Assembly (NCBI RefSeq): GCF_001547525.1
Contig: NZ_CM003769.1
Span: 682,001-746,000, forward strand
Length of the DNA: 64,000 nucleotides
Direction of reading: 5' to 3'
DNA from: Burkholderia anthina
GTDB taxonomy: Bacteria; Pseudomonadota; Gammaproteobacteria; Burkholderiales; Burkholderiaceae
Shown here in pieces: positions 9,000-58,741 of this stretch. A model generated the notes under the pieces. It was not told the DNA's origin and did no database searches. It saw only the letters and a program-made list of their open reading frames with translations. The stretch's first letter is position 1. Each line of letters starts with the position of its first letter. The position numbers and the translations under genes are program-made.

Positions 9000-9039
9000 G
9001 GGTGTCTCCTTCCCAATGTCTCGTCGATGAAGGCGCCGA

Positions 9040-9966: not shown

Positions 9967-10360
9967 CTGTTGTCTCTTCCTTGGTATAGGGGGGGCGACC
10001 GCGCGCGTGGTCGGCGGTTCGCGAAACGTGATAATAAAATCACATAAAGTGTGAAAATGCAATCCTGTGATGTTAGTGGGGTCACTTTGGGGACGACGGG
10101 CAGGCGGGCAAAAACCCATCCCGCCGCGTCAGGAAGGCTTCGAATTCGTCAGGGGAGCGTGGCGAATCATCACGCGAACGATGTCGGCGGGAGGACGAAC
10201 TCACCGCGAAGCGGCGCGCATGCCGCGGCGGTCCATGCAGCGTCGCGCCGCAACGACGCAAACGGGAATCGCCGGCGCCTTCGTGCAAGCTGTATTCAGG
10301 GTGCTCGCCGCCATGCAGTAGCGCGATGCATGCCCACGCGTCGCGACGATCGGAGCGCTG
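9967..10360. other. Intergenic region upstream of the sugar kinase
   Basis: No convincing gene. The first 100 bases contain an AT-rich patch with the inverted repeat listed separately and probably hold the kinase operon promoter. The rest is ordinary GC-rich sequence lying after the exporter gene. Reading frames across it lack recognisable domains. Confidence 0.6.
10040..10054. promoter_or_regulatory. Inverted repeat TCACA-N5-TGTGA, candidate operator of the deoxyribose operon
   Basis: Perfect 5-bp arms (TCACA 10040-10044, TGTGA 10050-10054) in an AT-rich patch about 75 nt before the kinase start. The minus-strand word TTTTCACA from this site also occurs in the deoC-deoR divergent region. 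This fits a common binding site for the DeoR-type regulator, though it also resembles half of a CRP site (TGTGA-N6-TCACA in opposite order), so the bound protein is uncertain. Confidence 0.4.
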
Positions 10361-11658: not shown

Positions 11659-14464
<2,806 letters not shown>

Positions 14465-14515
14465 CGCGCGACGCGCGCGGCCATGTGTTCCATCTCAACA
14501 GGAGAGTGTGCCCTC

Positions 14516-16216: not shown

Positions 16217-16232
16217 TCGGCCGACCTCCGGA

Positions 16233-17336
16233 ATGAAAATGATCGAAGACATTCAATTGAACGAGGCGGGGGCCAGGGAGCGCCCCGCGGGAGCGTACGA
16301 CGCGACCACGCGCGTGGCCGCGAGCTGGTACGTCGCGATGCGCTCGGCCGACCTCAGGGACAAACCGACGGCGCTGACGCTCTTCGGCCGGCCGTGCGTC
16401 GCGTGGCGCGGCGCGTCGGGACGGGCCGTGGTGATGGACCGCCACTGCGCGCACCTTGGCGCGAACCTGGCCGATGGGCAGATCAGGGACGGGTGCATCC
16501 AGTGCCCGTTTCACCATTGGCGATACGACGAGCGCGGCCAGTGCGTGCACATTCCCGGCAATAGCCCGGCGGTACACCGGCTGGAGCCCGTTCCGCGCGG
16601 CGCGCGCCAGCCGACGTGGGTCACCGCCGAGCGGTATGGTTACGTGTGGGTCTGGTACGGTTCCGCGCAGCCGCTGCACCCGCTGCCCGACATCGCCGCG
16701 GCCGACGTCGACAACGACGATTTCATGCATCTGCACTTCGCGTTCGAGACGACGACGGCGGTCTTGCGGATCGTCGAGAACTTCTACGACGCGCAGCACG
16801 CGACGCCCGTCCACGCGCTCCCGGTCTCGGCCTTCGAGCTCAAGCTGTTCGACGATTGGCGCGAATGGCCGGAGGTCGAGCCGCTGGCGCGGGCGGGCGC
16901 GTGGTTCGGCGCCGGGATCGACTTCACGGTGGACCGGTACTTCGGGCCGCTCGGCATGCTGTCGCGCGCGCTGGGCCTGAACATGTCGCAGATGAACCTG
17001 CACTTCGACGGCTATCCCGGCGGGTGCGTGATGACCGTCGCGCTGGACGGAGACGCCAAATACAAGCTGCTGCAGTGCGTGACGCCGATAAGCGACGGCA
17101 AGAACGTCATGCACATGCTGATCTCGATCAGGAAGGTGGGCGGCCTCCTGCGCCGCGCGACCGACTACGTGCTGTTCGGGCTCCAGACCCGGCAGGCCGC
17201 GGGGTACGACGTCAAGATCTGGAACGGGATGAAGCCGGACGGCGGCGGCGCGTACAGCAAGTACGACAAGCTCGTGCTCAAGTACCGCGCGTTCTACCGG
17301 GGGTGGGTCGACCGCGTCGGCTCGAGCGAACCGTGA
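16233..17336 (+). CDS. prnD: Aminopyrrolnitrin oxygenase (Rieske N-oxygenase)
   Basis: Final step: oxidises the aryl amine of aminopyrrolnitrin to the nitro group. 367 aa from this ATG; a second ATG two codons later would also fit the family. The Rieske 2Fe-2S ligands are Cys72/His74 (HCAH) and Cys91/His94 (CPFHH). The mononuclear iron site follows in NFYDAQHATPVH (His189, His194). Numbering is three higher than in the characterised Pseudomonas enzyme because of the longer N-terminus. A ferredoxin/flavin reductase partner is required but absent here. The gap to prnC is 16 nt. Confidence 0.98.
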   Translation: MKMIEDIQLNEAGARERPAGAYDATTRVAASWYVAMRSADLRDKPTALTLFGRPCVAWRGASGRAVVMDRHCAHLGANLADGQIRDGCIQCPFHHWRYDERGQCVHIPGNSPAVHRLEPVPRGARQPTWVTAERYGYVWVWYGSAQPLHPLPDIAAADVDNDDFMHLHFAFETTTAVLRIVENFYDAQHATPVHALPVSAFELKLFDDWREWPEVEPLARAGAWFGAGIDFTVDRYFGPLGMLSRALGLNMSQMNLHFDGYPGGCVMTVALDGDAKYKLLQCVTPISDGKNVMHMLISIRKVGGLLRRATDYVLFGLQTRQAAGYDVKIWNGMKPDGGGAYSKYDKLVLKYRAFYRGWVDRVGSSEP

Positions 17337-29912: not shown

Positions 29913-30164
29913 ATGGAACTCAAAATTCAGAAGTGGGGCAACAGTGCGGCCGTACGGCTTCCTGCTGTGTTGTTGGAGCAGATCGGCGCGTCGGCTGGCA
30001 GTTCTCTGCACGCCGATGTACGGCCGGATGGCGTGTTGCTTTCGCCCGCGCGGCGCAAATATTCGCTGGATGAACTCGTTGCGCAATGCGATCCGAAGGC
30101 TCCGCAACCGGCAGACCTCGTCGCGTGGGGTGAAGTCAAGCCCGTGGGACGTGAGGCATGGTGA
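29913..30164 (+). CDS. mazE: MazE-type antitoxin
   Basis: An 83-aa antitoxin with an N-terminal AbrB/MazE swapped-hairpin domain (MELKIQKWGNSAAVRLPAVLL) and a flexible acidic C-terminus that would bind the toxin. GGAG sits 6 nt before this ATG; an upstream ATG at 29889 lies on the -10 element and is therefore rejected. The stop overlaps the toxin start, typical for a toxin-antitoxin operon that represses itself. The pair is wedged between two convergent chromosomal genes. Confidence 0.88.
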   Translation: MELKIQKWGNSAAVRLPAVLLEQIGASAGSSLHADVRPDGVLLSPARRKYSLDELVAQCDPKAPQPADLVAWGEVKPVGREAW

Positions 30165-30508
30165 GGCGCGTCAAGTTCGACCGTGGCGATATCGTGCGGG
30201 TTAGCCTGAATCCGACAGTGGGCAAAGAACAGCAAGGGGATTTCCGTCCCGCGCTGGTTCTGTCACCCGCCGCGTTCAACACGCTTGGCGTGGCGCTCGT
30301 CGCGCCAATTACGCAAGGCGGCGAATTCGCGCGATACGCGGGATTCGCTGTGCCGCTCTCGGGTTCGGGGACGGAGACGCAGGGCGTGGCGCTGGTGAAC
30401 ATGGTCCGCACGCTCGACCTCGAGGCGCGCGGCGCACGCAAAGTCGAGCGTGCCCCCATTGAAGTTGTCGAAGATGCGCTCGCTCGCCTGCAAACCATTT
30501 TGGAATGA
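30158..30508 (+). CDS. mazF: MazF/PemK-type endoribonuclease toxin
   Basis: A 116-aa mRNA interferase: RGDIVRVSLNPTVGKEQQG (substrate loop), the conserved FRPALVLSP core, VAPITQGG and a C-terminal VVEDALARLQTIL helix. Length and motifs are complete, so it is probably active and neutralised by the upstream antitoxin, which it overlaps by 7 nt. A small CCGGC-CTC-GCCGG hairpin follows the stop. Confidence 0.88.
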   Translation: MVRRVKFDRGDIVRVSLNPTVGKEQQGDFRPALVLSPAAFNTLGVALVAPITQGGEFARYAGFAVPLSGSGTETQGVALVNMVRTLDLEARGARKVERAPIEVVEDALARLQTILE

Positions 30509-42207: not shown

Positions 42208-42926
42208 CGGCAGCGGGCGCGGCGGCCCCCGATCGCCTGCGCGGCGAGGATGTGTTTCTCGCCTCGATCGCCGGCTACGTCGACACGCTCGGCTTCGTCG
42301 CGCTGTTCGGGCTCTTCACCGCGCACGTTACCGGCAACTTCATCCTGATCGGCTCGGGCCTCGCCGGTGTCGGCCAGGGCCTGATGATCAAGTGGCTCGC
42401 GTTTCCGGCATTCATCGCGGGCATCGTGGCCGCCCGCCTGCTCGATCACCGGATGCGCGTGCGCGGGCATGGCCCGCGGGCGCGCTCGCTGTACGCGCTG
42501 CAGACGATCCTGCTGGCCGGCTTCATGCTCGCGGGCGTCGCGGCGTCGCCGATCGGCAGCGCCGATGCGCCCGCGACGATCGTCTGCGGGCTGCTGGGGG
42601 CGGCGGCAATGGGCGTGCAGAACGCGCACGGCCGGCTGACCGCGCGCACCGTCGTCGCGAATACCGTGATGACCGGCAACGTCACGCAGGCGGTCATCGA
42701 TGCATTCGACTGGCTCGTGCCGATCGCCGCGCCGGCCGAACGGGAAGCCGCGCGCGCGCGGCTGCGACGCACGTTGCCGCCGGTCGCCGGGTTCGCGCTC
42801 GGTGCGGGCGCCGGCGCGAGCGCCTACCTGTACGCCGCGTTCTGGGCGCTGGCGCTGCCGCTCGCGATGCTCGTTTTCCTCACCTGGCGCGCCGGCCGGA
42901 CCGGCGACACGTCCGCGGCGCGCTGA
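42189..42926 (+). CDS. DUF1275 (YoaK-type) membrane protein
   Basis: A 245-aa polytopic membrane protein with about six hydrophobic segments and the DUF1275 hallmarks SIAGYVDTLGFVALFGLFTAHVTGNFILIG (residues about 27-56) and MGVQNAHGRLTARTVVANTVMTGNVTQ (about 139-165). The family resembles small transporters, but its substrate is unknown. It overlaps the XapX gene and is probably translated with it. Confidence 0.85.
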   Translation: MQPAQVTAAGAAAPDRLRGEDVFLASIAGYVDTLGFVALFGLFTAHVTGNFILIGSGLAGVGQGLMIKWLAFPAFIAGIVAARLLDHRMRVRGHGPRARSLYALQTILLAGFMLAGVAASPIGSADAPATIVCGLLGAAAMGVQNAHGRLTARTVVANTVMTGNVTQAVIDAFDWLVPIAAPAEREAARARLRRTLPPVAGFALGAGAGASAYLYAAFWALALPLAMLVFLTWRAGRTGDTSAAR

Positions 42927-43236
42927 GCGCCGATACTGCGCGCGGCGTCGGCTGTGCGCGACATCGGGGGCGGCGAAGCCGCTCCCGTTTCTTCATTCCG
43001 TCAACGCTGGCTTCAAGATTGGCTTGATTCAGGTCGGCAAGCGCCAGACGCCTCGACCGTTCACGGCTGATCTCCCGGAAACCGACACTCGGGGTGACGG
43101 ATGCGCAAATCACGCACAACGCGCGACTTCGCGCGCTGCGCCTTCCGTTCAAGCTGTTCGGCAGCATCGAGAAGATGACGGCCTTCGTCGACGACGACGC
43201 GGCCCATGCGCGTGAGCTTCGCTCGACGTGTGCCTG
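42927..43236. other. Spacer between DUF1275 and a minus-strand XapX gene
   Basis: No gene called. A GTG-started frame at 43094-43285 (63 codons) overlaps the end of the XapX gene and has no recognised family or clear ribosome site. No strong hairpin was seen. Confidence 0.4.
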
Positions 43237-43518
43237 TCACGTCGGTGTCGATTCGCGGTGCTTCACGGAAGCGTCGGAGGTGTGAGCGCCAGGTAACGGG
43301 CCGAACATGTGCTGACTGCACTTCGCGTCGCGCCACGCGGTTCCCGGTCGAATGCCGTCGAGCATCCGTCGCACCACGGGAAGAATCTGTTCGCCGGCCA
43401 GAATGCCAAGCAGGCCGGCGAGGGCGACGGCGGGCGGCGCCGGCGATTGCACGCCGATCAGCGCGTAGACGACGCCGGCGAGGATGCCGGCGAAAAGCGA
43501 AGCAGTGTACGGTTTCAT
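43237..43518 (-). CDS. XapX-domain small membrane protein with C-terminal extension
   Basis: 93 aa starting MKPYTASLFAGILAGVVYAL, then GVQSPAPPAVALAGLLGILAGEQ, a near-consensus XapX unit of about 50 residues with two membrane helices. The remaining 40 residues are polar, contain Cys and His (AKCSQHMFGP) and match nothing known, so the gene may have read through an ancestral stop. It is divergent from the YcaC-like gene across 306 nt. Confidence 0.75.
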   Translation of the reverse strand: MKPYTASLFAGILAGVVYALIGVQSPAPPAVALAGLLGILAGEQILPVVRRMLDGIRPGTAWRDAKCSQHMFGPLPGAHTSDASVKHRESTPT

Positions 43519-43824
43519 CGTTCTGGAATGAAATGACAGCCGTTAAAAATACGGATACCTACCGGTCTGGCGTCGATCCGAAAGTCTTGGGCCAGCCTAT
43601 CAGGTCGGCGCGCTCGTCGTTGGCGCATTCAATGAAATTCAGAACTTTTCAGTCTGAATGTCGAGCGTGGCGAGAATCAGAACAATTAACTGGTGCGGCC
43701 GCACGTTCGCGTATTGAATGACGCAGGCCGGCTGCCGACGCTTCCGACACCGCGCATTGGACGCCTCGCGGATTCGTCGGCCAGGCGAGTCTCATTTTTC
43801 TCCGCGTCAAAGGACATCATCACC
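43519..43824. promoter_or_regulatory. Divergent promoter region with inverted repeat
   Basis: 306 nt between the minus-strand XapX gene and the YcaC-like gene; no coding frame of interest. It contains a 7-bp inverted repeat ATTCAGA-N9-TCTGAAT (43637-43659) in an AT-rich stretch, a good candidate for a regulator site of the downstream operon. Confidence 0.45.
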
Positions 43825-44511
43825 ATGAGCAATCCCAAGCTTGAAGTACTTACCCCGCACAACAGCCAGCTGATCTTCATCGACCAGCAGCCGCAGATGG
43901 CCTTCGGCGTGCAGTCGATCGATCGGCAGACGCTGAAGAACAACGTCGTCGGGCTCGCGAAGGCCGCGAAGGTCTTCAACATTCCCACCACGATCACGAC
44001 GGTCGAAAGCGAGAGCTTCTCCGGCCACACCTATCCCGAGCTGCTCGACGTGTTCCCGAACCAGAAGACGCTCGAACGCACGTCGATGAACTCGTGGGAC
44101 GACCAGAAGGTGCGCGACGCGCTCGCCGCGAACGGCCGCAAGAAGGTGGTCGTGTCGGGCCTGTGGACCGAAGTCTGCAATACGACGTTCGCGCTGTGCG
44201 CGATGCTCGAGGGCGACTACGAGATCTACATGGTGGCCGACGCTTCGGGCGGCACGACGCAGGCCGCGCACGATATCGCGATGCAGCGCATGGTGCAGGC
44301 CGGCGTGGTGCCCGTCACGTGGCAGCAGGTGCTGCTCGAATGGCAGCGCGACTGGGCGCACCGCGAGACGTACGACGCGGTGATGGCGATCGCGAAGGAG
44401 CATTCGGGCGCATACGGGATGGGCGTGGACTACGCGTACACGATGCTCCACAAGGCGCCGCAGCGTACCGCGACGCCGCACGAGTCGATTGCGCCCGTTC
44501 CGGCGAAGTAA
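43825..44511 (+). CDS. Isochorismatase-fold cysteine hydrolase (YcaC-like)
   Basis: A 228-aa hydrolase of the isochorismatase superfamily. Asp20 (LIFIDQQPQM) and the nucleophile Cys118 (GLWTEVCNTTFALCAMLEG) are in place, followed by VVADASGGTTQAAHDIAMQRM, all as in YcaC. YcaC-type enzymes have no settled physiological substrate. It has an AGGA ribosome site and opens a plus-strand run with a XapX protein, an amidohydrolase, a VOC protein and an outer-membrane channel, suggesting uptake and hydrolysis of an amide-like compound (inferred). Confidence 0.87.
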   Translation: MSNPKLEVLTPHNSQLIFIDQQPQMAFGVQSIDRQTLKNNVVGLAKAAKVFNIPTTITTVESESFSGHTYPELLDVFPNQKTLERTSMNSWDDQKVRDALAANGRKKVVVSGLWTEVCNTTFALCAMLEGDYEIYMVADASGGTTQAAHDIAMQRMVQAGVVPVTWQQVLLEWQRDWAHRETYDAVMAIAKEHSGAYGMGVDYAYTMLHKAPQRTATPHESIAPVPAK

Positions 44512-44679
44512 GCGCGGACGGCCTGCAACCGCGGATGCCGGTGCGACGGGTTCGATGCGAACGCGCCGCATCGGCTCCATTGCCGCGGGCGGCGGACGTG
44601 ACCGAAACACGAATGCCGCCCGCGGCATGCCGTTCGGCACACCGCGCCTGCATTTGAAATTGTCCGGGAGATTGATCGC

Positions 44680-44847
44680 ATGAAACCTTATCTGGTTTCC
44701 CTTGGTGCGGGCCTGCTGATCGGTGTGATTTACAGCGCCATCAAGGTTCGCTCTCCCGCACCGCCGCTGATTGCGCTGGTCGGGTTGCTCGGCATGCTGA
44801 TCGGCGTGCAAGCGTTACCCACCGTGAAACAGCTGTTTGGCTTCTGA
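44680..44847 (+). CDS. XapX-domain small membrane protein
   Basis: 55 aa, a near-perfect XapX protein: MKPYLVSLGAGLLIGVIYSA, then VRSPAPPLIALVGLLGMLIGVQ and a short KQLFGF tail. Two predicted membrane helices with the conserved SPAPP turn. GGGAG precedes the ATG. It lies between the YcaC-like hydrolase and the amidohydrolase, 19 nt before the latter's start, within one probable operon. Function unknown. Confidence 0.85.
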   Translation: MKPYLVSLGAGLLIGVIYSAIKVRSPAPPLIALVGLLGMLIGVQALPTVKQLFGF

Positions 44848-44866
44848 TCAACAAGAGGTGATGCAC

Positions 44867-46756
44867 ATGACCGCAACCGTGACCCAACCGGATCTGATCC
44901 TGCATAACGGACGATTCACGACGCTCGACCGCGCGAACCCCGTCGCGACGGCCGTCGCGATTGCCGCCGGCCGCTTCGTCGCCGTCGGCAGCGACGCGGA
45001 CGTCATGCCGCTCGCGGGCCGCGCGACGAAAGTGGTCGATCTCGGCGGCCGCGGCGTGCTGCCGGGCCTGATCGACAACCACTGCCACGTGATTCGTGGC
45101 GGCCTGAACTACAACATGGAGCTGCGCTGGGACGGCGTGCCGTCGCTCGCGGTCGCGATGGAGATGCTCAAGCGCCAGGTCGCCGTGACGCCCGCGCCGC
45201 AATGGGTGCGTGTGGTCGGCGGCTTCACCGAGCACCAGTTCGTCGAGAAACGGCTGCCGACGATCGATGAGCTCAATGCGGTCGCGCCCGATACGCCCGT
45301 GTTCATCCTGCGCCTGTACGACCGCGCGTTGCTGAACGCGGCCGCGCTGCGCGTGGTCGGCTATACGAAGGACACGCCGGAGCCGCCGGGCGGCACGATC
45401 CTGCGCGATGCCGCGGGCAATCCGACCGGCCTGCTGCTCGCGAACCCGAATGCGACGATCCTCTACGCGACGCTCGCGAAGGGGCCGAAGCTGCCGTTCG
45501 AGTATCAGTACAACTCGACGCGCCATTTCATGCGCGAGCTGAACCGGCTCGGCGTGACGGGCGTGATCGACGCGGGCGGCGGCTCGCAGAATTATCCCGA
45601 CGATTACGAAGTGATCCGCAAGCTGCACGACGCGGGCGAGATGACGATCCGGATCGCGTACAACCTGTTCACGCAGAAGCCGAACGCGGAGAAGGAAGAC
45701 TTCGTGAACTGGACGAAGAGCGTCAAGTACCACGACGGCACCGACTACTTCCGCAATAACGGCGCGGGCGAGATGCTGGCGTTCTCGGCGGCAGACTTCG
45801 AGGATTTCCGCGTCGCGCGGCCGGATTTGCCCGCGCAGATGGAGGACGACCTCGAAGGCGTCGTGCGCGTGCTCGCGGAAAACCGCTGGCCGTGGCGCAT
45901 GCACGCGACCTATGACGAAACGATCAGCCGCGCGCTGGACGTGTTCGAGAAGGTCAACGAAGACATCCCGCTCGACGGTCTGAACTGGTTCTTCGATCAT
46001 GCGGAAACCATCTCCGAGAAATCGATGGACCGGATCGCCGCGCTCGGCGGCGGCATCGCGGTGCAGCACCGGATGGCGTACCAGGGCGAATACTTCGTCG
46101 AGCGTTACGGCGCTCAGGCCGCCGAGGCGACGCCGCCTGTCGCGAAGATGCTCGGCAAGGGGCTCAAGGTATCGGCCGGCACGGACGCCACGCGCGTCGC
46201 GTCGTACAACCCGTGGGTGTCGCTCGCGTGGCTCGTGACGGGCAAGACGGTCGGCGGCATGCGCCTGTATCCGCAGCGCAGCCTGCTCGATCGCGAAACC
46301 GCGCTGCGGATGTGGACCGAGTACGTGACGTGGTTCTCGAACGAGGAAGGCAAGAAAGGGCGCATCGCGGTGGGGCAGCTTGCCGACCTCGTGGTCCCCG
46401 ATCGCGATTTCTTCGCGTGCGCGGAAGACGATATCGCCGGCACGACCGCGTTGCTGACGGTGGTCGACGGGAAGATCGTGTGGGGCGCGGGGCCGTTCGC
46501 GTCGCACGACGCGCCGATTCCGCCGGCGATGCCGGACTGGTCGCCGGTGCGCGAGTTCGGCGGCTATGGCGGCTGGGGCGCGACGCAGCGCGCCGGCGCG
46601 CCGTTGCAGCGCGCGGCGGCCGCCGCGATGTGCGGCTGCGCGAACGAATGCAACGTTCACCAGCATGCGCACGCGAGCGCATGGGCGAACGCGTTGCCGA
46701 CGTCTGACGCGAAGGGTTTCTGGGGCGCGTTCGGCTGTTCGTGCTGGGCGGTCTGA
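44867..46756 (+). CDS. YtcJ-like metal-dependent amidohydrolase
   Basis: A 629-aa amidohydrolase. The metal-binding set is complete: His72-x-His74 (LIDNHCHVIRGG), HATYDE, the His in FFDHAETIS and the Asp in SAGTDATR, so it should be active. The C-terminal beta-sandwich part reads VVDGKIVWG. Unusually it ends in a Cys/His-rich tail (MCGCANECNVHQHAHAS ... GCSCWAV) absent from typical YtcJ proteins. The ATG chosen has AGAGG at an 8-nt spacing; the ATG two codons upstream is too close. Substrate unknown. Compare the paralogue at 56.1 kb. Confidence 0.85.
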   Translation: MTATVTQPDLILHNGRFTTLDRANPVATAVAIAAGRFVAVGSDADVMPLAGRATKVVDLGGRGVLPGLIDNHCHVIRGGLNYNMELRWDGVPSLAVAMEMLKRQVAVTPAPQWVRVVGGFTEHQFVEKRLPTIDELNAVAPDTPVFILRLYDRALLNAAALRVVGYTKDTPEPPGGTILRDAAGNPTGLLLANPNATILYATLAKGPKLPFEYQYNSTRHFMRELNRLGVTGVIDAGGGSQNYPDDYEVIRKLHDAGEMTIRIAYNLFTQKPNAEKEDFVNWTKSVKYHDGTDYFRNNGAGEMLAFSAADFEDFRVARPDLPAQMEDDLEGVVRVLAENRWPWRMHATYDETISRALDVFEKVNEDIPLDGLNWFFDHAETISEKSMDRIAALGGGIAVQHRMAYQGEYFVERYGAQAAEATPPVAKMLGKGLKVSAGTDATRVASYNPWVSLAWLVTGKTVGGMRLYPQRSLLDRETALRMWTEYVTWFSNEEGKKGRIAVGQLADLVVPDRDFFACAEDDIAGTTALLTVVDGKIVWGAGPFASHDAPIPPAMPDWSPVREFGGYGGWGATQRAGAPLQRAAAAAMCGCANECNVHQHAHASAWANALPTSDAKGFWGAFGCSCWAV

Positions 46757-47071
46757 CAGGGCGATGCGTGCCACTTGCGACACCGCGGCGCAGGTCCGCG
46801 CGCTGCCGTCGCGGCCATGGGAAATCCAGCAGCGCGTCATCGTGCTCGACGATATACGACGCCAGACCGGCAGCGTTCCCGCCATTCGGTGACGTTGCGG
46901 CGACCGCGCTGAAACGACGAGTCTGCGCCGTCTCCCGCCGGGCGGGAAGCCGCGCGCGCCGCTCGTGTTTCTCGCCGGTCGTCCGGCCGCCCGGACGCGT
47001 GGCCCGTATCCCGCTGAATCCGAATCCGCGCGCGGCGCTGGCCGCGCGCATCACCATCAAGGAGAAAACCG
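46757..47071. other. Spacer between the amidohydrolase and the VOC gene
   Basis: 315 nt without a gene. It contains the palindrome TCCCGCCGGGCGGGA (46933-46947) and a perfect 7-bp hairpin CGTCCGG-CCGC-CCGGACG (46980-46997); neither has a T-tract. An AAGGAG ribosome site for the next gene lies at its end. Confidence 0.5.
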
Positions 47072-48025
47072 ATGAGTTCATTGAACCTGCGCACCATGCT
47101 GCGCATGACCGCCGCGTCGTCGGCCGTGCTCGCCGCGCTGCTGGCCGGCGCGCCGGCGCTCGCCGACGAAACCCATCTCGACGACATCGCGTCGCCGGCC
47201 GCCGCGGCGCGGTTCCCCGCCGTTGCGGTCGGCCCGCAGTACGACACGACCCACGTGTGCGTCGCGCCTGAGGACTTCGACCGCTTCACCGACAGCTTCG
47301 TCGCGACGTTCGGCGGCAAGAAGTCGAAGCAGGGCGTGTTCCAGGTCACGCCGACGCCAAGCCAGACGATGTCGCAGCTCGTGCTGACGCCGGTCGGCAC
47401 GATCTCGGTGTTCGGTTTCAAGACACCGATTCCGTATCCGTTCTGCGAGGAGCGCACCGGCTATCTCGTCACCGACATGGACGTCGCGGTGAAGTCGGCG
47501 CGCGCGCATGGCGCGGACATCGTCGTGGCGACGTTCCCCGACCCGATCGGCCGCGACGCGATCGTCCGCTGGCCGGGCGGCGTGAACATGCAGCTGTACT
47601 GGCATACGCAGGCGCCGAACTACGACCCGCTGCAGACGGTGCCGGAGAATCGCGTGTACGTGTCGCCGGAAAGCGCGGGCAAGCTCGCGCGCGACTTCGC
47701 GGCGTTCTCGCACGGCAAGATCGTGTCGGACGTGCGCCATGCGCCGGGCATCGAGATCGGGCGGCCGAACGACACGTATCGCCGCATTCGCATCGAATCG
47801 GGCTTCGGCAAGATGACCGTGCTCGCGACCGACGGCCATCTGCCGTACCCGTTCGGCCGTGAGATGACGGGCTACGAAGTGGCCGATCTCGCGGCGACGC
47901 TGAAGCAGGCCGAAGCCGCGGGCGTGACGGTGCTCGTGCCGCCGTTCAAGTCGGACGGGCGCGACGCGGCGCTCGTGCAGTTCCCGGGCGGCTACGTCGC
48001 CGAGATCCACGCGCGATCGAAATGA
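47072..48025 (+). CDS. Exported VOC (glyoxalase-like) family protein
   Basis: 317 aa with a signal peptide (MTAASSAVLAALLAGAPALA then DETHL), so periplasmic. Two VOC-like halves follow, each with a related strand pattern: EERTGYLVTDMDVAVKSARAHGADIVV and REMTGYEVADLAATLKQAEAAGVTVLV (residues about 128-155 and 268-295), ending FPGGYVAEIHA. VOC proteins bind a metal and act on small molecules, but export is unusual. The stop overlaps the next gene by 4 nt. Confidence 0.82.
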   Translation: MSSLNLRTMLRMTAASSAVLAALLAGAPALADETHLDDIASPAAAARFPAVAVGPQYDTTHVCVAPEDFDRFTDSFVATFGGKKSKQGVFQVTPTPSQTMSQLVLTPVGTISVFGFKTPIPYPFCEERTGYLVTDMDVAVKSARAHGADIVVATFPDPIGRDAIVRWPGGVNMQLYWHTQAPNYDPLQTVPENRVYVSPESAGKLARDFAAFSHGKIVSDVRHAPGIEIGRPNDTYRRIRIESGFGKMTVLATDGHLPYPFGREMTGYEVADLAATLKQAEAAGVTVLVPPFKSDGRDAALVQFPGGYVAEIHARSK

Positions 48026-49500
48026 CGGTGCACCGGCCGATGAAGCGATCGTGGCGCGGCGCGCTGTCGTGCGTCGTGCTGGCGGGCGGTGCCGCGTCGC
48101 ACGCGGGTACCGCCGTCGGCGCCGAGGCCGATGCGGCGTCGGCCGGCGCGGCCGCGTCGCCGGCTGCCGCCGCCGCGTCGTGCACCGCGAAACGCCCGAC
48201 GGTGCTGTTCAACCGCTGGCAGGAAGACTGGTCGGCGCTCGCGAATCCGTGCGTGCCGCGCAAGCCGTTCGACGCGCTGAAATACGTGCCGCTCGGCGAC
48301 GACCCGTCGACCTATCTGTCGCTCGGCGCGAACCTGCGCGAGCGATTCGAGCTGAACAACGCGCCGCTGTTCGGCCTCGGCGCCGCGCACGACGACAACT
48401 ACGTGATCCAGCGCGCGAACGTGCATGCGGACCTGCGCTATCGCGGGCACCTGCAGGCGTTCGTGCAGTTCGTCGATGCGCGGCCGTTCGGCAAGGATAC
48501 GGTCGGCCCGGTCGACAAGGACCAGCTCGACCTCGAGCAGGCGTTCGTCGCGTACGTCGATCAACTCGGGCCCGGCACGTTCAAGACGCGGATCGGCCGG
48601 CAGGAGATGGCGTTCGACTTGCAGCGCTTCGTGTCGGTGCGCGACGGCCCGAACGTGCGCCAGGCGTACGACGGACTGTGGACCGATTACGAGATCGGCA
48701 AATGGCGCGTGATCGGCTATGTGACGCGTCCGGTGCAGTATCGCAACGCGGCCGCGTTCGACGACGTGTCGAACCGGCACCTGCGATTCGACGGCGTGCG
48801 CGTCGAGCGCACGGGCACGGGGCCCGGCGATCTGTCCGCGTACTGGTCGCGCTACACGCGCGACAACGCGCGCTATCCGGATGCATCCGGCACCGAGCGG
48901 CGCGACGTGTTCGACATGCGCTACGCGGGCAAGACCGACGGGTTCGACTGGGACGTCGAGGCGATGCTGCAGACGGGCCATGTCGGGCAGGACACGATCG
49001 GCGCGTGGGCGTTCGGCGCGCTGGGCGGCTACACGTTCGCGAAGACGGCCGGCACGCCGCGCGTCGGCATCCAGGTCGACGGCGCATCGGGCGACGCGCA
49101 TCCGGGCGACCGGCGCGTCGGCACGTTCAACCCGATGTTTCCGAACGGCTATTACTTCACGCTCGCCGGGTATACCGGATACAGCAACCTGATCCACGTG
49201 AAGCCGTCGCTGACCTTCAAGCCGGCAAGCTCGGTGACGGTGCTCACCGCCGTCGGCTTCCAGTGGCGGCAGACGACGGCCGACGCGATCTACGGGCAGG
49301 GGATGTCGGCGGTGCCGGGCACGGCGGGCAAGGGCGGCGCGTGGACGGGGATGTACGCGCAGGCGCGCGTCGACTGGCTCGTGAACGCGAACGTCGCGCT
49401 CGCGCTCGAAGCCGTGCACTTCCAGCTCGGCTCGTCGATTCGCGCGCTCGGCGCGCGCAATGCCGACTATGTCGGGATGGAAGCGAAGTTCGGCTGGTGA
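48022..49500 (+). CDS. Alginate-export-type outer-membrane channel
   Basis: 492 aa. The N-terminal signal region is Ala-rich, followed by a beta-barrel rich in alternating hydrophobic strands and ending in Phe-Gly-Trp (EAKFGW), the usual terminal aromatic signal for outer-membrane insertion. Segments such as YLSLGANLRERFELNN, YVIQRANVHADLRYRG and RIGRQEMAFDLQRFVS match the AlgE-like alginate export domain, a family that also includes substrate-uptake porins. Coupled to the periplasmic VOC gene by a 4-nt overlap, it probably admits the substrate of this cluster. Confidence 0.83.
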   Translation: MTVHRPMKRSWRGALSCVVLAGGAASHAGTAVGAEADAASAGAAASPAAAAASCTAKRPTVLFNRWQEDWSALANPCVPRKPFDALKYVPLGDDPSTYLSLGANLRERFELNNAPLFGLGAAHDDNYVIQRANVHADLRYRGHLQAFVQFVDARPFGKDTVGPVDKDQLDLEQAFVAYVDQLGPGTFKTRIGRQEMAFDLQRFVSVRDGPNVRQAYDGLWTDYEIGKWRVIGYVTRPVQYRNAAAFDDVSNRHLRFDGVRVERTGTGPGDLSAYWSRYTRDNARYPDASGTERRDVFDMRYAGKTDGFDWDVEAMLQTGHVGQDTIGAWAFGALGGYTFAKTAGTPRVGIQVDGASGDAHPGDRRVGTFNPMFPNGYYFTLAGYTGYSNLIHVKPSLTFKPASSVTVLTAVGFQWRQTTADAIYGQGMSAVPGTAGKGGAWTGMYAQARVDWLVNANVALALEAVHFQLGSSIRALGARNADYVGMEAKFGW

Positions 49501-49524
49501 CGCGCCGCGCCCGGCTCTCGCGTA

Positions 49525-53041: not shown

Positions 53042-55945
53042 ATGGTCCAGATCGGAACTTTGTCGGTGGATTTCGAGCAGCGGGACATTCGCCGTCACGG
53101 CGCGTCGCTGCGCATCGGCGCGCGCGCGCTCGACATTCTCGAGGTCCTGCACCGCGCGAGCGGTTCGGTCGTGTCGAAAGACGACATCATGGATGCGGTC
53201 TGGCCGGGCCTGATCGTCGAGGAAAACCGGCTGCAGGTGCATGTGGCGACGCTGCGCAAGGCGCTCGGCGCGAGCCGCGATCTGATCAAGACGGTGCCCG
53301 GGCGCGGCTATCTGCTGGTCGCGAGCCCGTCGCCCGGCCCGGACCTCGTGCCCGCGGCCGACGCGCCGGCCGTCGCGGCGCCGCCCGACGCTCCCGCGTC
53401 GTCGCTGCTTGCGCCGCTCGTCGGGCGCGACGCCGAAATCGCGCAGATCGTCGACATGCTCGAGCGCACGCCGGTCGTCACGCTCGTCGGCGCGGGCGGC
53501 ATCGGCAAGACGAGTCTTGCCGTACGCGTCGCGCACGGCGTGCGCAGCCGCTCGCGCGAGCGCGTGCTGTTCGTCGAGCTGGCGCGCGCGTCGACGCGCG
53601 ACGACATGCTGATCGCGCTGGCCGCCGAGCTCGGTCTCGACACGCAGGGCGTGCCGGCCATCGAGCGCATCGGCGACGCGTTCGCGACGTCGCGCTGCCT
53701 GCTCGTGCTCGACAACGCGGAGCACATCGTCGATCTGGTGGCGAGCCTCGTCGAAACGCTGACGTCGCGCGCCGGCTCGCCGCGCGTGCTCGTGACGAGC
53801 CGCGAGCCGCTGCACATCTCGGCCGAAGCGGTGCTGCGGATGAGCCCGCTCGCGGTGCCGGACGGCGGCGCGTCCGTCCCGGAAATGGTCCGCTGTTCGG
53901 CCGTCGAGCTGTTCCTGGAGCGCGTGCGCACGGCCGCGCCGGATTGTCCGGTCGACGAAGCCGGCGTGCGGGTGATCGCGGACATCTGCCGGCGCCTCGA
54001 CGGGCTGCCGCTCGCGATCGAGCTGGCCGCGGCGCGCGTGGCGACGCTCGGGCTCGCGGTCGTCGCGTCGCGTCTCGACGACCGGCTGAACCTGCTGACG
54101 GGCGGGCTGCGCTCGGCGCTGCCGCGTCATCAGACGCTGCGGGCGACGTTCGACTGGAGCTACGTGCTGCTCGATCCGGCCGCGCGCGCGCTGTTTCGCC
54201 GGATGGGATGCTTCATCGGGCCGTTTTCGTTCGATGCCGCACGCGCGGTCGCGACCGAGCCCGGCACGTCGGCCGCGGACATGATCGCGGTGCTCGGCGA
54301 GCTGGTGGCGAAGTCGCTGGTGACCGTCGAGTTCCATGGCGCGTATGCGCGCTACCGGCTGACCGAATCGACGCGCGCGTACGCGCTCGAAAAACTGCAC
54401 AACGAAGGCGAATTCGAACGCATCGTCGCGCGCCACGCGGCGTACGAGCGCGAGCATGCGCCCGCGCGTCCCGCGACGCTCGCCGACGCGCTGCCCGCGG
54501 ATGCACCCGCGCCGGCCGCGGACGAACCGGCGGAGGCCGCCGTGGCCGCCGTGGCCGCAGGCGTGCCCGAGCCCGACCGGCTGGCGCGCGCGCTGCTCGA
54601 GCCGGCGCGGATGCGCGCGTGTACGGCGCGCGCGCGCCAGGTACTCGACGCGCTCGACACGGGCGCCGCGGGCCCGGTCGACGCCGCGCGCGAGATGCGG
54701 CTGCGGGCGGCCTGCGCGTCGGCGCTGCTGCATACCGATGGCGATGCGCCGGCCGCCGCCGCTATGTGGAACCGCACGCTCGGTCTCGCCGCGCATATCG
54801 GCGACGATGCGTTCGACGCGCGCGCGCTGGTCGGGCTGTGGCATACGATGCTGACGCTGTCGGACATCCACGAATCGCTGCGCTACGCGACGCGCTTCGA
54901 GCGCGCGGCCGAGCGGCGCGGGGACCGGTCGCAGCGGTTGCTGGCGAACACGATGGTCGCGACGTCGCTGCATTACTTCGGCGAGCATGCGCAGGCGCGC
55001 GAGCGGCTGGAAGCGGCGACGGCCGAACTCGCCGACGCGGACGAACCGGCGTGCGCGCAGGCCGCGCTCGGCGTCGACATGGCGACGCTGGGGCGCACGA
55101 TGCTGATCCGTCTGCTCTGGATGCAAGGCGAGCCCGAGCATGCGATGCGCGTCGCCGCGCAGGCGGTCGAGTGCGCGCGCCGCGGCCCGTCGGCGCTCAC
55201 GCTGTGCATCGTGCTCGGTGCGGCCGCCGCGCCGATCGCGCTGCGCTACGGCGATCACGACATCACCTCCGACTATCTCGCGACGCTGCGCGCGACCGCC
55301 GACGCGCACGGCTTCGACATCTGGCGCAGTCACGCGGAATGCCTGACCGGACAGTTCGACATCCAGGCCGGCCATCCCGGCGCCGGTCTCGCCCGCCTCG
55401 AACCGGCGCTGCGGCGCGTCGAGGCGAGCGGTTTCCGGCGTCTGCTCGCGCCGTTGACCGTTGCGTACGCGGAGGGCCTCGTGCGGACCGGCCGCGCGAA
55501 CGAAGCGCGCTCCCGGCTCGATGCGACGCTCGCGCGCTGCCGCGCGCACGGCGAGCACCTGTTCGTCCCGGAATTGCTGCGGGTGAACGGCGTCGCGATG
55601 CTCGAACAGGCGCGCACCGTCGGCGCGGATCTCGCGGTGGCGTACGAGGCCGACGGCCATCGTCATCTGCAGATGGCGATCCAGACCGCGAATGCGCAGG
55701 GCGCCGCGATGTGGGCGCTGCGCAGTTCGCTCGATCTCGCCGATCACCTGATCGAGCGCGGGCACACCGCGCAGGCGTCGACGCTGGTTGCCGCGGGCGC
55801 GCGGCACTTCGATCCGGATTCGCGCGCGCACGACGTGCGCCGCCTGCTGCGCGTGCAGAACTTCGTCCGTCAGGAGGCGCCGCTCGCGCCGTGCCGGACG
55901 CGCGCGCGACGCGATGCCGCCGACGCGGCGCAGCAGGCGGCATAG
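53042..55945 (+). CDS. Winged-helix DNA-binding ATPase, large transcriptional regulator
   Basis: 967 aa. Residues 1-95 form an OmpR-type winged helix (VQIGTLSVDFEQRDIRRHG, NRLQVHVATLRKALG, IKTVPGRGYLL). An NTPase module of the STAND type follows, with Walker A VGAGGIGKTSLA (149-160), Walker B CLLVLDNAEHI and the GLPLAIELAAARV motif. The C-terminal 450 residues are helical and TPR-like. GGAGG precedes the ATG. Such proteins activate transcription after binding a ligand or partner. It lies 132 nt before the amidohydrolase and HD-family genes, its likely targets. Confidence 0.88.
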   Translation: MVQIGTLSVDFEQRDIRRHGASLRIGARALDILEVLHRASGSVVSKDDIMDAVWPGLIVEENRLQVHVATLRKALGASRDLIKTVPGRGYLLVASPSPGPDLVPAADAPAVAAPPDAPASSLLAPLVGRDAEIAQIVDMLERTPVVTLVGAGGIGKTSLAVRVAHGVRSRSRERVLFVELARASTRDDMLIALAAELGLDTQGVPAIERIGDAFATSRCLLVLDNAEHIVDLVASLVETLTSRAGSPRVLVTSREPLHISAEAVLRMSPLAVPDGGASVPEMVRCSAVELFLERVRTAAPDCPVDEAGVRVIADICRRLDGLPLAIELAAARVATLGLAVVASRLDDRLNLLTGGLRSALPRHQTLRATFDWSYVLLDPAARALFRRMGCFIGPFSFDAARAVATEPGTSAADMIAVLGELVAKSLVTVEFHGAYARYRLTESTRAYALEKLHNEGEFERIVARHAAYEREHAPARPATLADALPADAPAPAADEPAEAAVAAVAAGVPEPDRLARALLEPARMRACTARARQVLDALDTGAAGPVDAAREMRLRAACASALLHTDGDAPAAAAMWNRTLGLAAHIGDDAFDARALVGLWHTMLTLSDIHESLRYATRFERAAERRGDRSQRLLANTMVATSLHYFGEHAQARERLEAATAELADADEPACAQAALGVDMATLGRTMLIRLLWMQGEPEHAMRVAAQAVECARRGPSALTLCIVLGAAAAPIALRYGDHDITSDYLATLRATADAHGFDIWRSHAECLTGQFDIQAGHPGAGLARLEPALRRVEASGFRRLLAPLTVAYAEGLVRTGRANEARSRLDATLARCRAHGEHLFVPELLRVNGVAMLEQARTVGADLAVAYEADGHRHLQMAIQTANAQGAAMWALRSSLDLADHLIERGHTAQASTLVAAGARHFDPDSRAHDVRRLLRVQNFVRQEAPLAPCRTRARRDAADAAQQAA

Positions 55946-56077
55946 CGATGCGCGAATCCGGTGCAGCAGCGCGCCCGCGCGATCGCGGCATGCGTGCCGA
56001 CGCGCGCGGTGCGGCCGCGTTTCAGGCAGCGGCGCCGAGCAGCGCGTCGCGCGCGGATGCGCACGGGAGGCCCGACG

Positions 56078-57964
56078 GTGCTTAGGGCGACGGAACCCGC
56101 GCGCTCGGCGGACCTCGTCGTCTTCAACGGCAAGATCGCGACCCAGGACGAACGACGCTCGTTCGTCCGCGCGCTCGCCGTGAAGGACGGGACCATCGTC
56201 GCGACCGGCGACGATCGCGACGTGCTGCGCCATGCGCGCGACGGCACGACCCGTATCGATCTGAACGGCCGTACCGTGATACCGGGCCTGATCGATGCGC
56301 ACCTGCAGGCGATCCGCGGCGGCATGAACTTCAACCTCGAGGTGCGCTGGGACGGCGTGCCGTCGCTTGCCGACGCGCTCGAACTGCTGGGCCGGCAGGT
56401 GCGACGCACGCCCGCGCCGCAATGGGCGCGCGTGGCGGGCGGCTGGACGGCGCTGCAGTTCGCGGAAAAGCGCGGCCCGACGGTGGCCGAGCTCAACGCG
56501 ATCGCGCCCGACACGCCCGTATTCATTCAGCATCTGGGCGACAGCGCGTGGCTGAATGCGGCCGCGCTGCGCGCGCTCGGCTACGGCCGCGACACGCCCG
56601 ATCCGCCCGGCGGCGAACTGCGGCGCGATCGCCACGGGCGGCCGACCGGGCTGCTGCTCGCGCGTCGGGATCCGGCCGTGCTGTTCGCGGCGCTCGCCCG
56701 CGCGCCCATGCTCGATGCGGCCGACCGGCTCAACTCCACGCGGCAGTTCATGCGCGCGCTGAACCGCGTGGGCGTGACGAGCGCGATCGACGCCGGCGGC
56801 GACGGCCTCGCGTATCCGGACGACTATGCGGCGGTCGCGACGCTCGCGCGGCGCGGCGAACTGACGACGCGCATCGCCTATGCGCTGGGCGCGCGGCACG
56901 CCGGCCGCGAGCTCGACGATTTCGCGACATGGATCGCGCGGACGGCGCCCGGCGACGGCGACGCGTTCCTGCGCGTGAGCGGCGCGGGCGAGCGGCTGCT
57001 GTGCTCGGCGATCGATCTCGGGAATTTTCTCGAACCGCGCGTCGAGCTGGCCGCGTCGGTCGACGCGGACCTGGCGGCCGTCGTCCGGCTGCTCGTGCGC
57101 CATCGCTGGCCGTTCCGGCTGCATGCGACCTACGACGAATCGATCGGCCGCTTCCTCGACGTGTTCGAAGCGGTGGATCGCGACACGCCGTTCGACGGGC
57201 TGCGCTGGTGCTTCGACCGCTGCGAGACGATCTCGGATGCCAATATCGCGCGTGTCGCGGCGCTGGGCGGCGGCATCACCGTGCAGCCGCGCATGGCGTT
57301 CCAGGGCGAAGCCTTCATCGCCCGCCACGGCGCGGCGGCGGCCACGCGCGCGCCGCCGATCCGCGCGATGCTCGCGGCCGGGCTGCCGGTCGGCGCGGGC
57401 TCCGGGGCGACGGGCGCGGCGAGCTACAACCCGTTCGTCGCGCTGTACTGGATGGTGTCGGGGCGCTCCGTCGGCGGCACCGCGCTGTATCCGGCGCGCA
57501 ACCGGCTCGGCCGGATGGAGGCGCTGCGCCGCTATACGGTCGGCAGCGCATGGTTCTCCGCCGACGAGCACCGCAAGGGCGCGCTGGTGCCCGGCCGGTA
57601 CGCCGACTTCGCGGTGCTGAGCGACGACTACTTCACGATCGACGCGCGGCGCATCCCCGCGTTGTCGTCGGTGCTGACGGTCGTCGACGGCAAGGTCGTG
57701 CACGCGGAGCAGGAATTCGCGCCGCTGGCGCCGCCGCCGCCGCCCGTCAGTCCCGCATGGTCGCCGGTCGCGGAAGGCGGCGTCGGCGGCGCGGCGCTCG
57801 CCCGTCCGCATGCGTCGGCGGCGGGCGACGCATGCGCGGCGCCCGGCAGCGATGCGTGCCGGGCGCGCGGTCACGGCCGCCGTTTCGCGCGGCCGCGCTA
57901 TCCGACGGCAAGTGCGGCCGCCGAGCGCTGCGAAGCGTTCGGCCGCTGCTGCGTCGCGTTTTGA
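56078..57964 (+). CDS. YtcJ-like amidohydrolase paralogue lacking metal ligands
   Basis: 628 aa from a GTG with GGGAGG at a 7-nt spacing; it is collinear with the amidohydrolase at 44.9 kb over its whole length. The metal ligands have changed: the first HxH is His75-Leu-Gln77 (LIDAHLQAIRGG), the FFDHAE His is Arg (CFDRCETIS, codon 57218-57220), and the GTD Asp is Gly (GAGSGATGA, codon 57404-57406). HATYDE is kept. Catalysis by the usual mechanism is therefore unlikely, yet the frame is intact, suggesting a pseudoenzyme with a new role. The Cys-containing tail (GRCCVAF) is also kept. Confidence 0.83.
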   Translation: MLRATEPARSADLVVFNGKIATQDERRSFVRALAVKDGTIVATGDDRDVLRHARDGTTRIDLNGRTVIPGLIDAHLQAIRGGMNFNLEVRWDGVPSLADALELLGRQVRRTPAPQWARVAGGWTALQFAEKRGPTVAELNAIAPDTPVFIQHLGDSAWLNAAALRALGYGRDTPDPPGGELRRDRHGRPTGLLLARRDPAVLFAALARAPMLDAADRLNSTRQFMRALNRVGVTSAIDAGGDGLAYPDDYAAVATLARRGELTTRIAYALGARHAGRELDDFATWIARTAPGDGDAFLRVSGAGERLLCSAIDLGNFLEPRVELAASVDADLAAVVRLLVRHRWPFRLHATYDESIGRFLDVFEAVDRDTPFDGLRWCFDRCETISDANIARVAALGGGITVQPRMAFQGEAFIARHGAAAATRAPPIRAMLAAGLPVGAGSGATGAASYNPFVALYWMVSGRSVGGTALYPARNRLGRMEALRRYTVGSAWFSADEHRKGALVPGRYADFAVLSDDYFTIDARRIPALSSVLTVVDGKVVHAEQEFAPLAPPPPPVSPAWSPVAEGGVGGAALARPHASAAGDACAAPGSDACRARGHGRRFARPRYPTASAAAERCEAFGRCCVAF

Positions 57965-58057
57965 GCGGCGCGTGCCGGTGTGCGACGCGCCGCGCGCCGG
58001 ACGCCCCCGGGCATTGAACGATTTTCCGCCCCGTGCGCGGGGCATGAAGGAGACAGG

Positions 58058-58741
58058 ATGAATGCTGCGCACCCGCGCGCACCGGCCATCGGCGACGAAG
58101 TGGCCGGCGTTCGCATTCCGCGCACGCCCGTTGCGCTCGATGCGGCCGACGCGGCCCGCGCGTCGTTGCCCGCCGTGCTGGTCGATCACGCGGCGCGCGT
58201 GTTCGTGTTCGCGTCGCTCGCCGCGCGGCGGGCAGGCGACGCATGCAACGCATGCGACGCCGACGCGCTGTACGTCGCCGCGATGTACGCGAACATGGGG
58301 TTGAGCCACGCGTATTGCCGCTCGACCGAGCGCTACGAGCTCGACGGCGCGGATGCCGCATGCGCGCTGCTGTTGCGCCATCGGCGCTCGCGGCGCGTGC
58401 GCGACGACGTGTGGCAGGCGATCGCGCTGCATACGACGCCCGGCGTGGCCGCCCGCGCGTCGCCGCTCGCGCGCGCGCTGGCGGCCGCCGTGTCGACCGA
58501 TCTGATGGCGACCGACTTCGACGCATACACGCTCGACGAGCGTGACGCGTTGCTCGCCGCGTATCCGCGCGGCAGCGGTTTTCGCGAAACGTTCCTCGCG
58601 ACGGTCGCGCGCGGCGTCGAACATCGGCCGCAATCGACGTTCGGCACGTGGAGCGCCGACGTGCTCGAACGCGCGGATCCGGATTTTCATCGGCCGAATT
58701 TCTGCGGGCGCGTGCTGGGCGCGCGGTGGAACGATACGTGA
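58058..58741 (+). CDS. HD-domain-family protein with a degenerate HD motif
   Basis: 227 aa, clearly related to the HD-domain hydrolases resembling cyanamide hydratase: STERYELDGADAA, IALHTTPG and PQSTFGTWSADVL are kept. The signature His-Asp, normally in a MFHDLGL-type context, reads MYANMGL here (Ala78-Asn79), while His44 and His125 remain. Without the HD pair, the metal site should be impaired. AAGGAG precedes the ATG. It follows the ligand-less amidohydrolase by 93 nt in the same direction. Confidence 0.8.
   Translation: MNAAHPRAPAIGDEVAGVRIPRTPVALDAADAARASLPAVLVDHAARVFVFASLAARRAGDACNACDADALYVAAMYANMGLSHAYCRSTERYELDGADAACALLLRHRRSRRVRDDVWQAIALHTTPGVAARASPLARALAAAVSTDLMATDFDAYTLDERDALLAAYPRGSGFRETFLATVARGVEHRPQSTFGTWSADVLERADPDFHRPNFCGRVLGARWNDT

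What the first reader, a model, noticed from the sequence alone, without database searches (positions are those of the whole stretch)
56078..58741. Adjacent pair of apparent pseudoenzymes: a metal-less amidohydrolase and an HD protein without HD
Seen directly: the amidohydrolase has HLQ instead of HCH, DRCE instead of DHAE and GSG instead of GTD compared with its intact paralogue at 44867. The next gene has AN (residues 78-79) where its family has the HD pair. Both frames are intact, well-coded, with good ribosome sites, and follow a large ATPase regulator. Known: these residues bind the metals in both superfamilies. Inference: two neighbouring enzymes lost catalysis but kept their folds, which suggests a joint non-catalytic role such as ligand sensing or regulation with the ATPase, or a new chemistry.
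Basis: partly seen in the sequence, partly recalled or inferred. Interest (0 to 1): 0.72.

Follow-up and report, generated by a model that had tools for sequence, protein, structure and literature searches.

The report
Enzyme pair that lost metal sites
Two neighbouring bacterial genes encode proteins shaped like metal-using enzymes whose metal-binding residues are partly gone; the loss is real, happened in two separate steps and the genes are still kept by selection, so they may do a different job now, perhaps helping the regulator encoded next to them.

Summary
In the amidohydrolase (56078-57964) three of five metal-ligand positions, invariant in 39 of 39 other rows of the genus alignment, are replaced. 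In the neighbour (58058-58741) the HD dyad is AN. Frames are open and codon-model dN/dS is 0.15-0.18, so this is not simple decay. A joint loss is not supported: the amidohydrolase site was lost once, in one clade of 13 Burkholderia genomes, with a burst of amino-acid change and then renewed constraint; the HD dyad was lost earlier, and dyad-less proteins lie beside intact amidohydrolases in 16 of 16 sister genomes, or in some species with none nearby. The HD-like protein has a confident cyanamide-hydratase (Ddi2) fold and keeps H44, R92, E94, D96 and H125 in all 74 dyad-less rows, so its pocket looks repurposed rather than dead. In 23 of 23 examined genomes of the wider 31-genome clade both genes follow a STAND-type regulator, without the metabolic genes that accompany their relatives. 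My leading, unproven mechanism: both act as ligand-binding or inhibitory partners of that regulator, as MalY and Aes act on MalT. The main rival is dyad-free catalysis by the HD-like protein.

The parts
53042..55945 (+). STAND-type regulator (Trans_reg_C winged helix, NB-ARC/AAA_16-like NTPase, long C-terminal part), first gene of the trio
   Evidence: Pfam PF00486, PF13401, PF13191, PF00931; same-strand neighbour of the pair in 23 of 23 distinct genomes examined in the clade
56078..57964 (+). YtcJ/Amidohydro_3-type amidohydrolase without its metal site (pseudoenzyme); GTG start at 56078 (an ATG at 56057 is in frame)
   Evidence: PF07969, 352 bits; ligand positions lost
56300..56308 (+). former HxH metal motif, now HLQ: first His kept, second His lost
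57122..57124 (+). strand-5 metal His, kept (12 of 13 in the clade)
57218..57220 (+). former strand-6 metal His, now Arg (DRCE), 13 of 13 in the clade
57287..57289 (+). His of VQHRM (39 of 39 outside rows), now Pro, 13 of 13 in the clade
57404..57406 (+). former strand-8 metal Asp, now Gly (GSG), 13 of 13 in the clade
58058..58741 (+). Ddi2-like (cyanamide hydratase fold) HD-family protein without the HD dyad
58289..58294 (+). former HD dyad, now Ala-Asn (residues 78-79)
58187..58501 (+). span that holds the retained residues H44, R92, E94, D96, H125 and D148
   Evidence: H44, R92, E94, D96, H125 in 74 of 74 dyad-less and 62 of 62 dyad-bearing rows; D148 in 71 of 74 (E in 3) and 61 of 62 (E in 1)
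44867..46756 (+). paralogous amidohydrolase with intact metal site and Cys/His tail (comparison)

Best explanation
Shown: the amidohydrolase has lost ligands needed for its family's metal-dependent hydrolysis, once, in one Burkholderia clade, and has since evolved under constraint. The HD-like protein belongs to an older branch of Ddi2-fold proteins that dropped the HD dyad but kept most other polar signature residues. In the genomes examined both genes lie directly behind a STAND-type regulator, without the metabolic genes that accompany their relatives. Inferred: the trio is a regulatory module. Enzyme folds that once processed the pathway's small molecules now bind such a molecule, or the regulator itself, and set the threshold for STAND activation, as the enzymes MalY and Aes do for MalT. 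The HD-like protein would be the ligand-binding member with its pocket kept; the amidohydrolase would be the scaffold or inhibitor whose active site became dispensable.
For: One clade of 13 (SH-aLRT 100) for the amidohydrolase loss; 62 of 76 rows keep all five ligands. Codon-model omega in up to 10 derived and 10 sister genomes: amidohydrolase 0.183/0.173, HD 0.170/0.149, STAND 0.164/0.168; with all 13 and 16 genomes, amidohydrolase 0.174/0.130, HD 0.151/0.153 (fits, printed). Burst then constraint: mean between-clade over mean within-clade dN is 2.54 for the amidohydrolase against 1.42-1.90 for nine other genes, at dS ratios of 1.27-1.69 for all ten (6-10 genomes a side). Fixed amino-acid differences between the clades per 100 gap-free columns: amidohydrolase 10.9, STAND 4.0, HD 4.0; flanking OYE 1.4, XDH 0, MFS 0. 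STAND-AMID-HD on one strand in 23 of 23 distinct genomes whose fetched flank reached the regulator (25 loci, two of them repeats; 8 further genomes of the 31-genome clade had short flanks and were not examined). The amidohydrolase's conserved Cys/His tail is missing in that same 31-row clade and needs one change on the tree (two of the 31 rows are cut by contig ends). Precedent: MalY and Aes, enzymes that inhibit the STAND regulator MalT by direct binding (PMC10427625, abstract and passages).
Against: No physical interaction with the regulator was tested. Gene order alone also fits a relic operon. Trio omegas are about one and a half to two and a half times those of flanking metabolic genes (OYE 0.094/0.114, MFS 0.078/0.080, XDH 0.065/0.079), so constraint is weaker than for those genes. 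On the full set the derived amidohydrolases are a third less constrained than the intact sisters (0.174 against 0.130; NG86 medians 0.254 against 0.201). Several former active-site positions vary within the clade (for example position 454: G, Q, D, V, C), which speaks against a conserved ligand in that pocket. Some dyad-less HD proteins have no STAND gene directly upstream, so this regulator cannot be the general reason for dyad loss. The excess of fixed differences in STAND and HD may partly reflect their higher baseline rate and other histories of the flanking genes.
Confidence: 0.38

Rival explanations
1. The HD-like protein is still an enzyme: it works without the dyad, through H44, E94, D96 and H125 (metal-free, or with a changed metal site), and the amidohydrolase is its scaffold or an unrelated passenger.
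Against: Ddi2 itself uses H55, H88 and D89 for zinc (PMC8177086, passages); two of these three positions are lost here by alignment. The dyad residues vary (AN, HN, HH, HL, HS, VN, SN, TN, AG, SH), so no single new catalytic pair was fixed. Of 42 columns near-invariant in dyad-bearing rows only 18 stay strictly invariant in the dyad-less ones.
Confidence: 0.3
2. The amidohydrolase is an inactive subunit that assembles with, and tunes, the intact paralogues of the same genome (44867 and chromosome 1).
For: The own genome has two intact paralogues at 50-51% identity (ligands); catalytically dead subunits of oligomeric enzymes are a common fate (recalled).
Against: It shares only about half of its residues with them and lacks the conserved Cys/His tail; its closest linkage is to STAND and HD, not to them.
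Confidence: 0.13
3. The trio is a slowly decaying remnant of the metabolic operon, kept by chance or by weak selection.
For: Relatives in G014 and G015 and in L132, L133 and L135-L137 sit in a longer run with alpha/beta hydrolase, isochorismatase, DoxX, DUF1427, DUF1275 and VOC-like genes (families); the trio lacks these, the tail and then the metal site. Constraint is weaker than in flanking genes, and in the full set a third weaker than in intact sisters.
Against: No stop inside the gene in any of 13 genomes; codon-model dN/dS 0.15-0.18, not near 1; 12 positions invariant elsewhere are replaced in all 13 genomes.
Confidence: 0.14
4. The amidohydrolase gained a new chemistry at the old site with the two remaining His residues.
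For: First His kept in 13 of 13 and strand-5 His in 12 of 13; burst of change then constraint.
Against: One close relative (G026) has lost the strand-5 His; the loop of the former Asp is variable. Among 59 non-overlapping differences between the clades the only ones where all derived rows share D, E, H or C alone are D53 (N-terminal part) and C593 and C601 (tail), none in the barrel motifs.
Confidence: 0.05

Closest known systems
YtcJ-like amidohydrolases (Pfam Amidohydro_3, PF07969; solved relatives 3igh, 3icj)
   Different: Three of five metal-ligand positions replaced; conserved Cys/His tail of its near relatives missing
Yeast cyanamide hydratase Ddi2 (6dk9, 6dka; TIGR03401)
   Different: HD dyad (H88-D89 in Ddi2) is Ala-Asn; score far below the TIGR03401 cut-off
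HD-related domains known to lack or blur the dyad (RelA's divergent HD domain, PMC8177086 passages; HDOD domains, recalled)
   Same: HD fold without canonical hydrolase residues
   Different: Different subfamily; here several polar signature residues are strictly kept and HD, HN and AN states are all seen in one tree
MalT with its enzyme-like inhibitors MalY and Aes (PMC10427625)
   Same: STAND regulator with enzyme-fold proteins as possible partners: a functional analogy only
   Different: MalY and Aes are a PLP enzyme and an esterase; no interaction is shown here

Membership tests
Amidohydro_3 (PF07969) | Sequence profile above the gathering score | tested here: met
   352 bits against 29.7
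Catalytic metal-dependent amidohydrolases | HxH, strand-5 His, strand-6 His and strand-8 Asp ligands (roles recalled) | tested here: not met
   H,Q,H,R,G in place of H,H,H,H,D
HD-domain metalloproteins | HD fold | tested here: met
HD-domain metalloproteins | HD dyad, called common to all members in PMC8177086 (passages) | tested here: not met
   Ala78-Asn79; 74 of 136 family rows lack HD
HD-domain metalloproteins | Terminal Asp of the metal site | tested here: inconclusive
   D148 is kept, but Ddi2 has T157 there and the sequence alignment seems to put T157 at a neighbouring column
Cyanamide hydratase family TIGR03401 | Curated score cut-off | tested here: not met
   36.8 of 109.85 bits; the dyad-bearing paralogue of the same genome scores 53.2 and is also below it
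Cyanamide hydratase family TIGR03401 | Hydration of cyanamide | not testable with these tools
   needs purified protein
STAND transcription regulators | DNA-binding domain plus STAND NTPase with Walker A | tested here: met
   PF00486, PF13191 and PF00931 above their cut-offs; GAGGIGKTS seen in the translation
MalY/Aes-type STAND inhibitors | Direct binding to the regulator | not testable with these tools
   gene adjacency only

The most novel reading that the evidence does not exclude
A branch of Ddi2-fold 'HD' proteins in Burkholderiaceae has given up the dyad that names the superfamily while strictly keeping H44, R92, E94, D96 and H125. Either it catalyses without that metal site or it has become a family of small-molecule receptors. 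In one Burkholderia clade its amidohydrolase partner then also gave up its metal site, turning part of a metabolic operon into a metal-free sensory module for a STAND regulator.
Probability: 0.3. Interest if true: 0.72.

Novelty: new variant of a known kind. Interest (0 to 1): 0.5.

Why it matters
It is a phylogenetically resolved case of two metalloenzymes in one gene cluster losing their metal sites one after the other while staying under selection. It goes against the working rule that HD-domain proteins keep the HD dyad, and it gives a clean comparison (13 derived against 16 intact sister genomes, same locus) for asking what a retired enzyme fold does. If the link to the STAND regulator holds, it would add two enzyme folds to the few known inhibitors or sensors of bacterial STAND activators.

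Tried and rejected
Simple decay as the leading idea: set back by dN/dS and the 13-genome conservation, though not excluded. Joint loss: rejected by the trees. A substitute metal site in the amidohydrolase: no conserved candidate in the barrel motifs by sequence; the AlphaFold model is weak there (pLDDT under 50 at, among others, residues 78-95, 298-330 and 449-457), so it cannot be used to argue about geometry. Literature: a search for a pseudoenzyme amidohydrolase and three for the gene cluster returned 0 papers in the held library; most subscription papers are missing from it, and the Ddi2 structure paper is not held. An N-substituted formamide or isonitrile pathway was considered because NfdA is placed in PF07969 (PMC13081902, figure-legend passage), but nothing here tests it. 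Other folds beyond Ddi2 were not pursued.

Rows left out of the HD tree: two broken or cut genes (L072, L080), loci that repeat a named one, and rows under 180 residues; four identical pairs remain in it. Rows left out of the amidohydrolase tree: L003 (repeat of the window paralogue), loci that repeat another one, and rows under 500 residues. L013 and L014 end at contig edges, so their tails are cut. In one search, 104 amidohydrolase and 92 HD hits were listed, many of them the same place seen in two loci; the alignments hold 53 and 42 rows (my note says 50 and 40, which is wrong). In one search and some flanking genes were found in fewer genomes (6-9), and the XDH and AraC alignments are cut to 518 and 95 codons.

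Full report
What is there. The window lies on contig C2 (963 kb) of a Burkholderia-like genome of 7.27 Mb in 4 contigs; the genus is inferred from named near relatives. Three genes run in one direction: a STAND-type regulator (about 53042-55945), an amidohydrolase (GTG 56078-57964) and an HD-family protein (58058-58741). Both downstream genes have good ribosome sites, seen directly in the sequence. Unless said otherwise, amidohydrolase numbers count the ATG at 56057 as residue 1 (alignment A2); those printed are one higher, as are the HD numbers printed.

Order of events. AN proteins lie directly beside intact amidohydrolases in the 16 sister genomes, and in the same gene run, one gene away, in Paraburkholderia tropica, Burkholderia sp. 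SRS-W-2-2016 and others. HN proteins lie in the same run as intact amidohydrolases in, for example, L149, L159, L165, L166 and L195. In P. heleia, P. sacchari, P. silvatlantica and P. bannensis an AN protein has no amidohydrolase in the fetched 8-kb flanks and, in the first three, lies beside an alpha/beta hydrolase gene. So the dyad went before the amidohydrolase site, and the two losses are separate events. The amidohydrolase also lacks a conserved C-terminal Cys/His tail (pattern like CxxxC..HxHxH ... FWGALGCSCFAF) in a clade of 31 rows (SH-aLRT 96, one change), which holds the 13 derived rows, the 16 sisters and two more.

Gene context. In G014 and G015 and in named loci L132, L133 and L135-L137 the amidohydrolase and HD genes sit in a longer run with an alpha/beta hydrolase, isochorismatase, DoxX, DUF1427, DUF1275, a VOC-like gene and usually an Alginate_exp porin (families by Pfam on ten representatives, where the VOC-like protein is just below its cut-off). 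In the 31-row clade STAND, amidohydrolase and HD follow each other directly: 25 loci, or 23 distinct genomes of 23 whose flank reached the regulator. Eight other genomes of the clade had flanks too short to examine. Dyad-bearing HD paralogues often lie instead next to, and divergent from, an AraC-type regulator with a GlxA/FtrA-like N-terminus (family c13, 29 loci; the L128 member matches FtrA at 250 bits, below the cut-off of 425).

Selection. IQ-TREE codon models give omega 0.174 for the derived amidohydrolases (13) and 0.130 for the intact sisters (16), and 0.151 and 0.153 for HD. On up to 10 plus 10 genomes with genes called at nearly full length the values are 0.183/0.173 (amidohydrolase), 0.170/0.149 (HD), 0.164/0.168 (STAND) against 0.094/0.114 (OYE), 0.078/0.080 (MFS) and 0.065/0.079 (XDH). 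Median pairwise NG86 values are 0.254 and 0.201 for the amidohydrolase and 0.191 and 0.202 for HD. The between/within ratio of dN is 2.54 for the amidohydrolase and 1.42-1.90 for nine other genes, while dS ratios are 1.27-1.69 for all ten: amino-acid change was concentrated at the split, then constraint returned. That is not the picture of a pseudogene. It is also not proof of a new function, since constraint on fold or on a complex would look the same.

Mechanism. I favour a regulatory module: the pair are partners of the adjacent STAND regulator. The argument is adjacency in every genome examined, similar omegas of the three genes, more fixed differences in all three than in three flanking genes, and the MalT precedent, in which enzyme-fold proteins inhibit a STAND activator by direct binding (PMC10427625, abstract and passages). 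It remains inference; no interaction was tested. The main rival is that the HD-like protein still does chemistry with its retained His/Glu/Asp/His set. I keep about one chance in three for that, because strict retention of these residues in 74 dyad-less rows is hard to explain for a mere scaffold.

Novelty. Pseudoenzymes and degenerate HD domains are known kinds. What is new, as far as the held literature shows (searches returned nothing; most subscription papers are not held), is this Ddi2-fold branch without the dyad and the two-step loss in one gene cluster. I file it as a new variant of a known kind.

Noticed in passing
window 42245-49515 and G000 contig C1, about 1135300-1143250 (L210): Contig C1 carries a parallel cluster; isochorismatase and amidohydrolase genes are 95-97% identical in DNA between the two, the VOC-like gene 87%, the porin 76%: a gradient that suggests recent gene conversion of one part.
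   Followed up: partly
C-terminus of the amidohydrolase at 44867-46756 and its relatives: A conserved Cys/His-rich tail ending in FWGA(L/F)GC(S/A)C(W/F)A(V/F) in most rows; possible metal binding or partner docking, function unknown. It is missing in the 31-row clade that holds the trio.
   Followed up: partly
L076-L079, L081, L082, L151, L158 (second HD group): Further, separate changes of the dyad (FHHFGL, FHLVGL) among intact FHDIGL relatives, beside STAND genes on the opposite strand.
   Followed up: partly
L110 (G112), about 8344-10086: An amidohydrolase outside the 13-genome clade with the second His of HxH replaced by Pro and a shortened tail: a separate partial loss.
   Followed up: no
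G026:C3:775627-777127, G003:C17:5-1353, G021:C2:598524-599008: Fragmented copies of the amidohydrolase (first two) and of the HD gene (third) in other genomes.
   Followed up: no
window 11763-17336: Four genes that look like the pyrrolnitrin cluster prnABCD (recalled from the look of the first protein); NCBIfam gave no match for the first two, sub-threshold halogenase/flavoprotein matches for the third and a sub-threshold Rieske-type monooxygenase match for the fourth.
   Followed up: partly
window 30158-30508: ChpB/MazF-type toxin gene of a toxin-antitoxin system (NF007320, 206 bits against a cut-off of 129).
   Followed up: no
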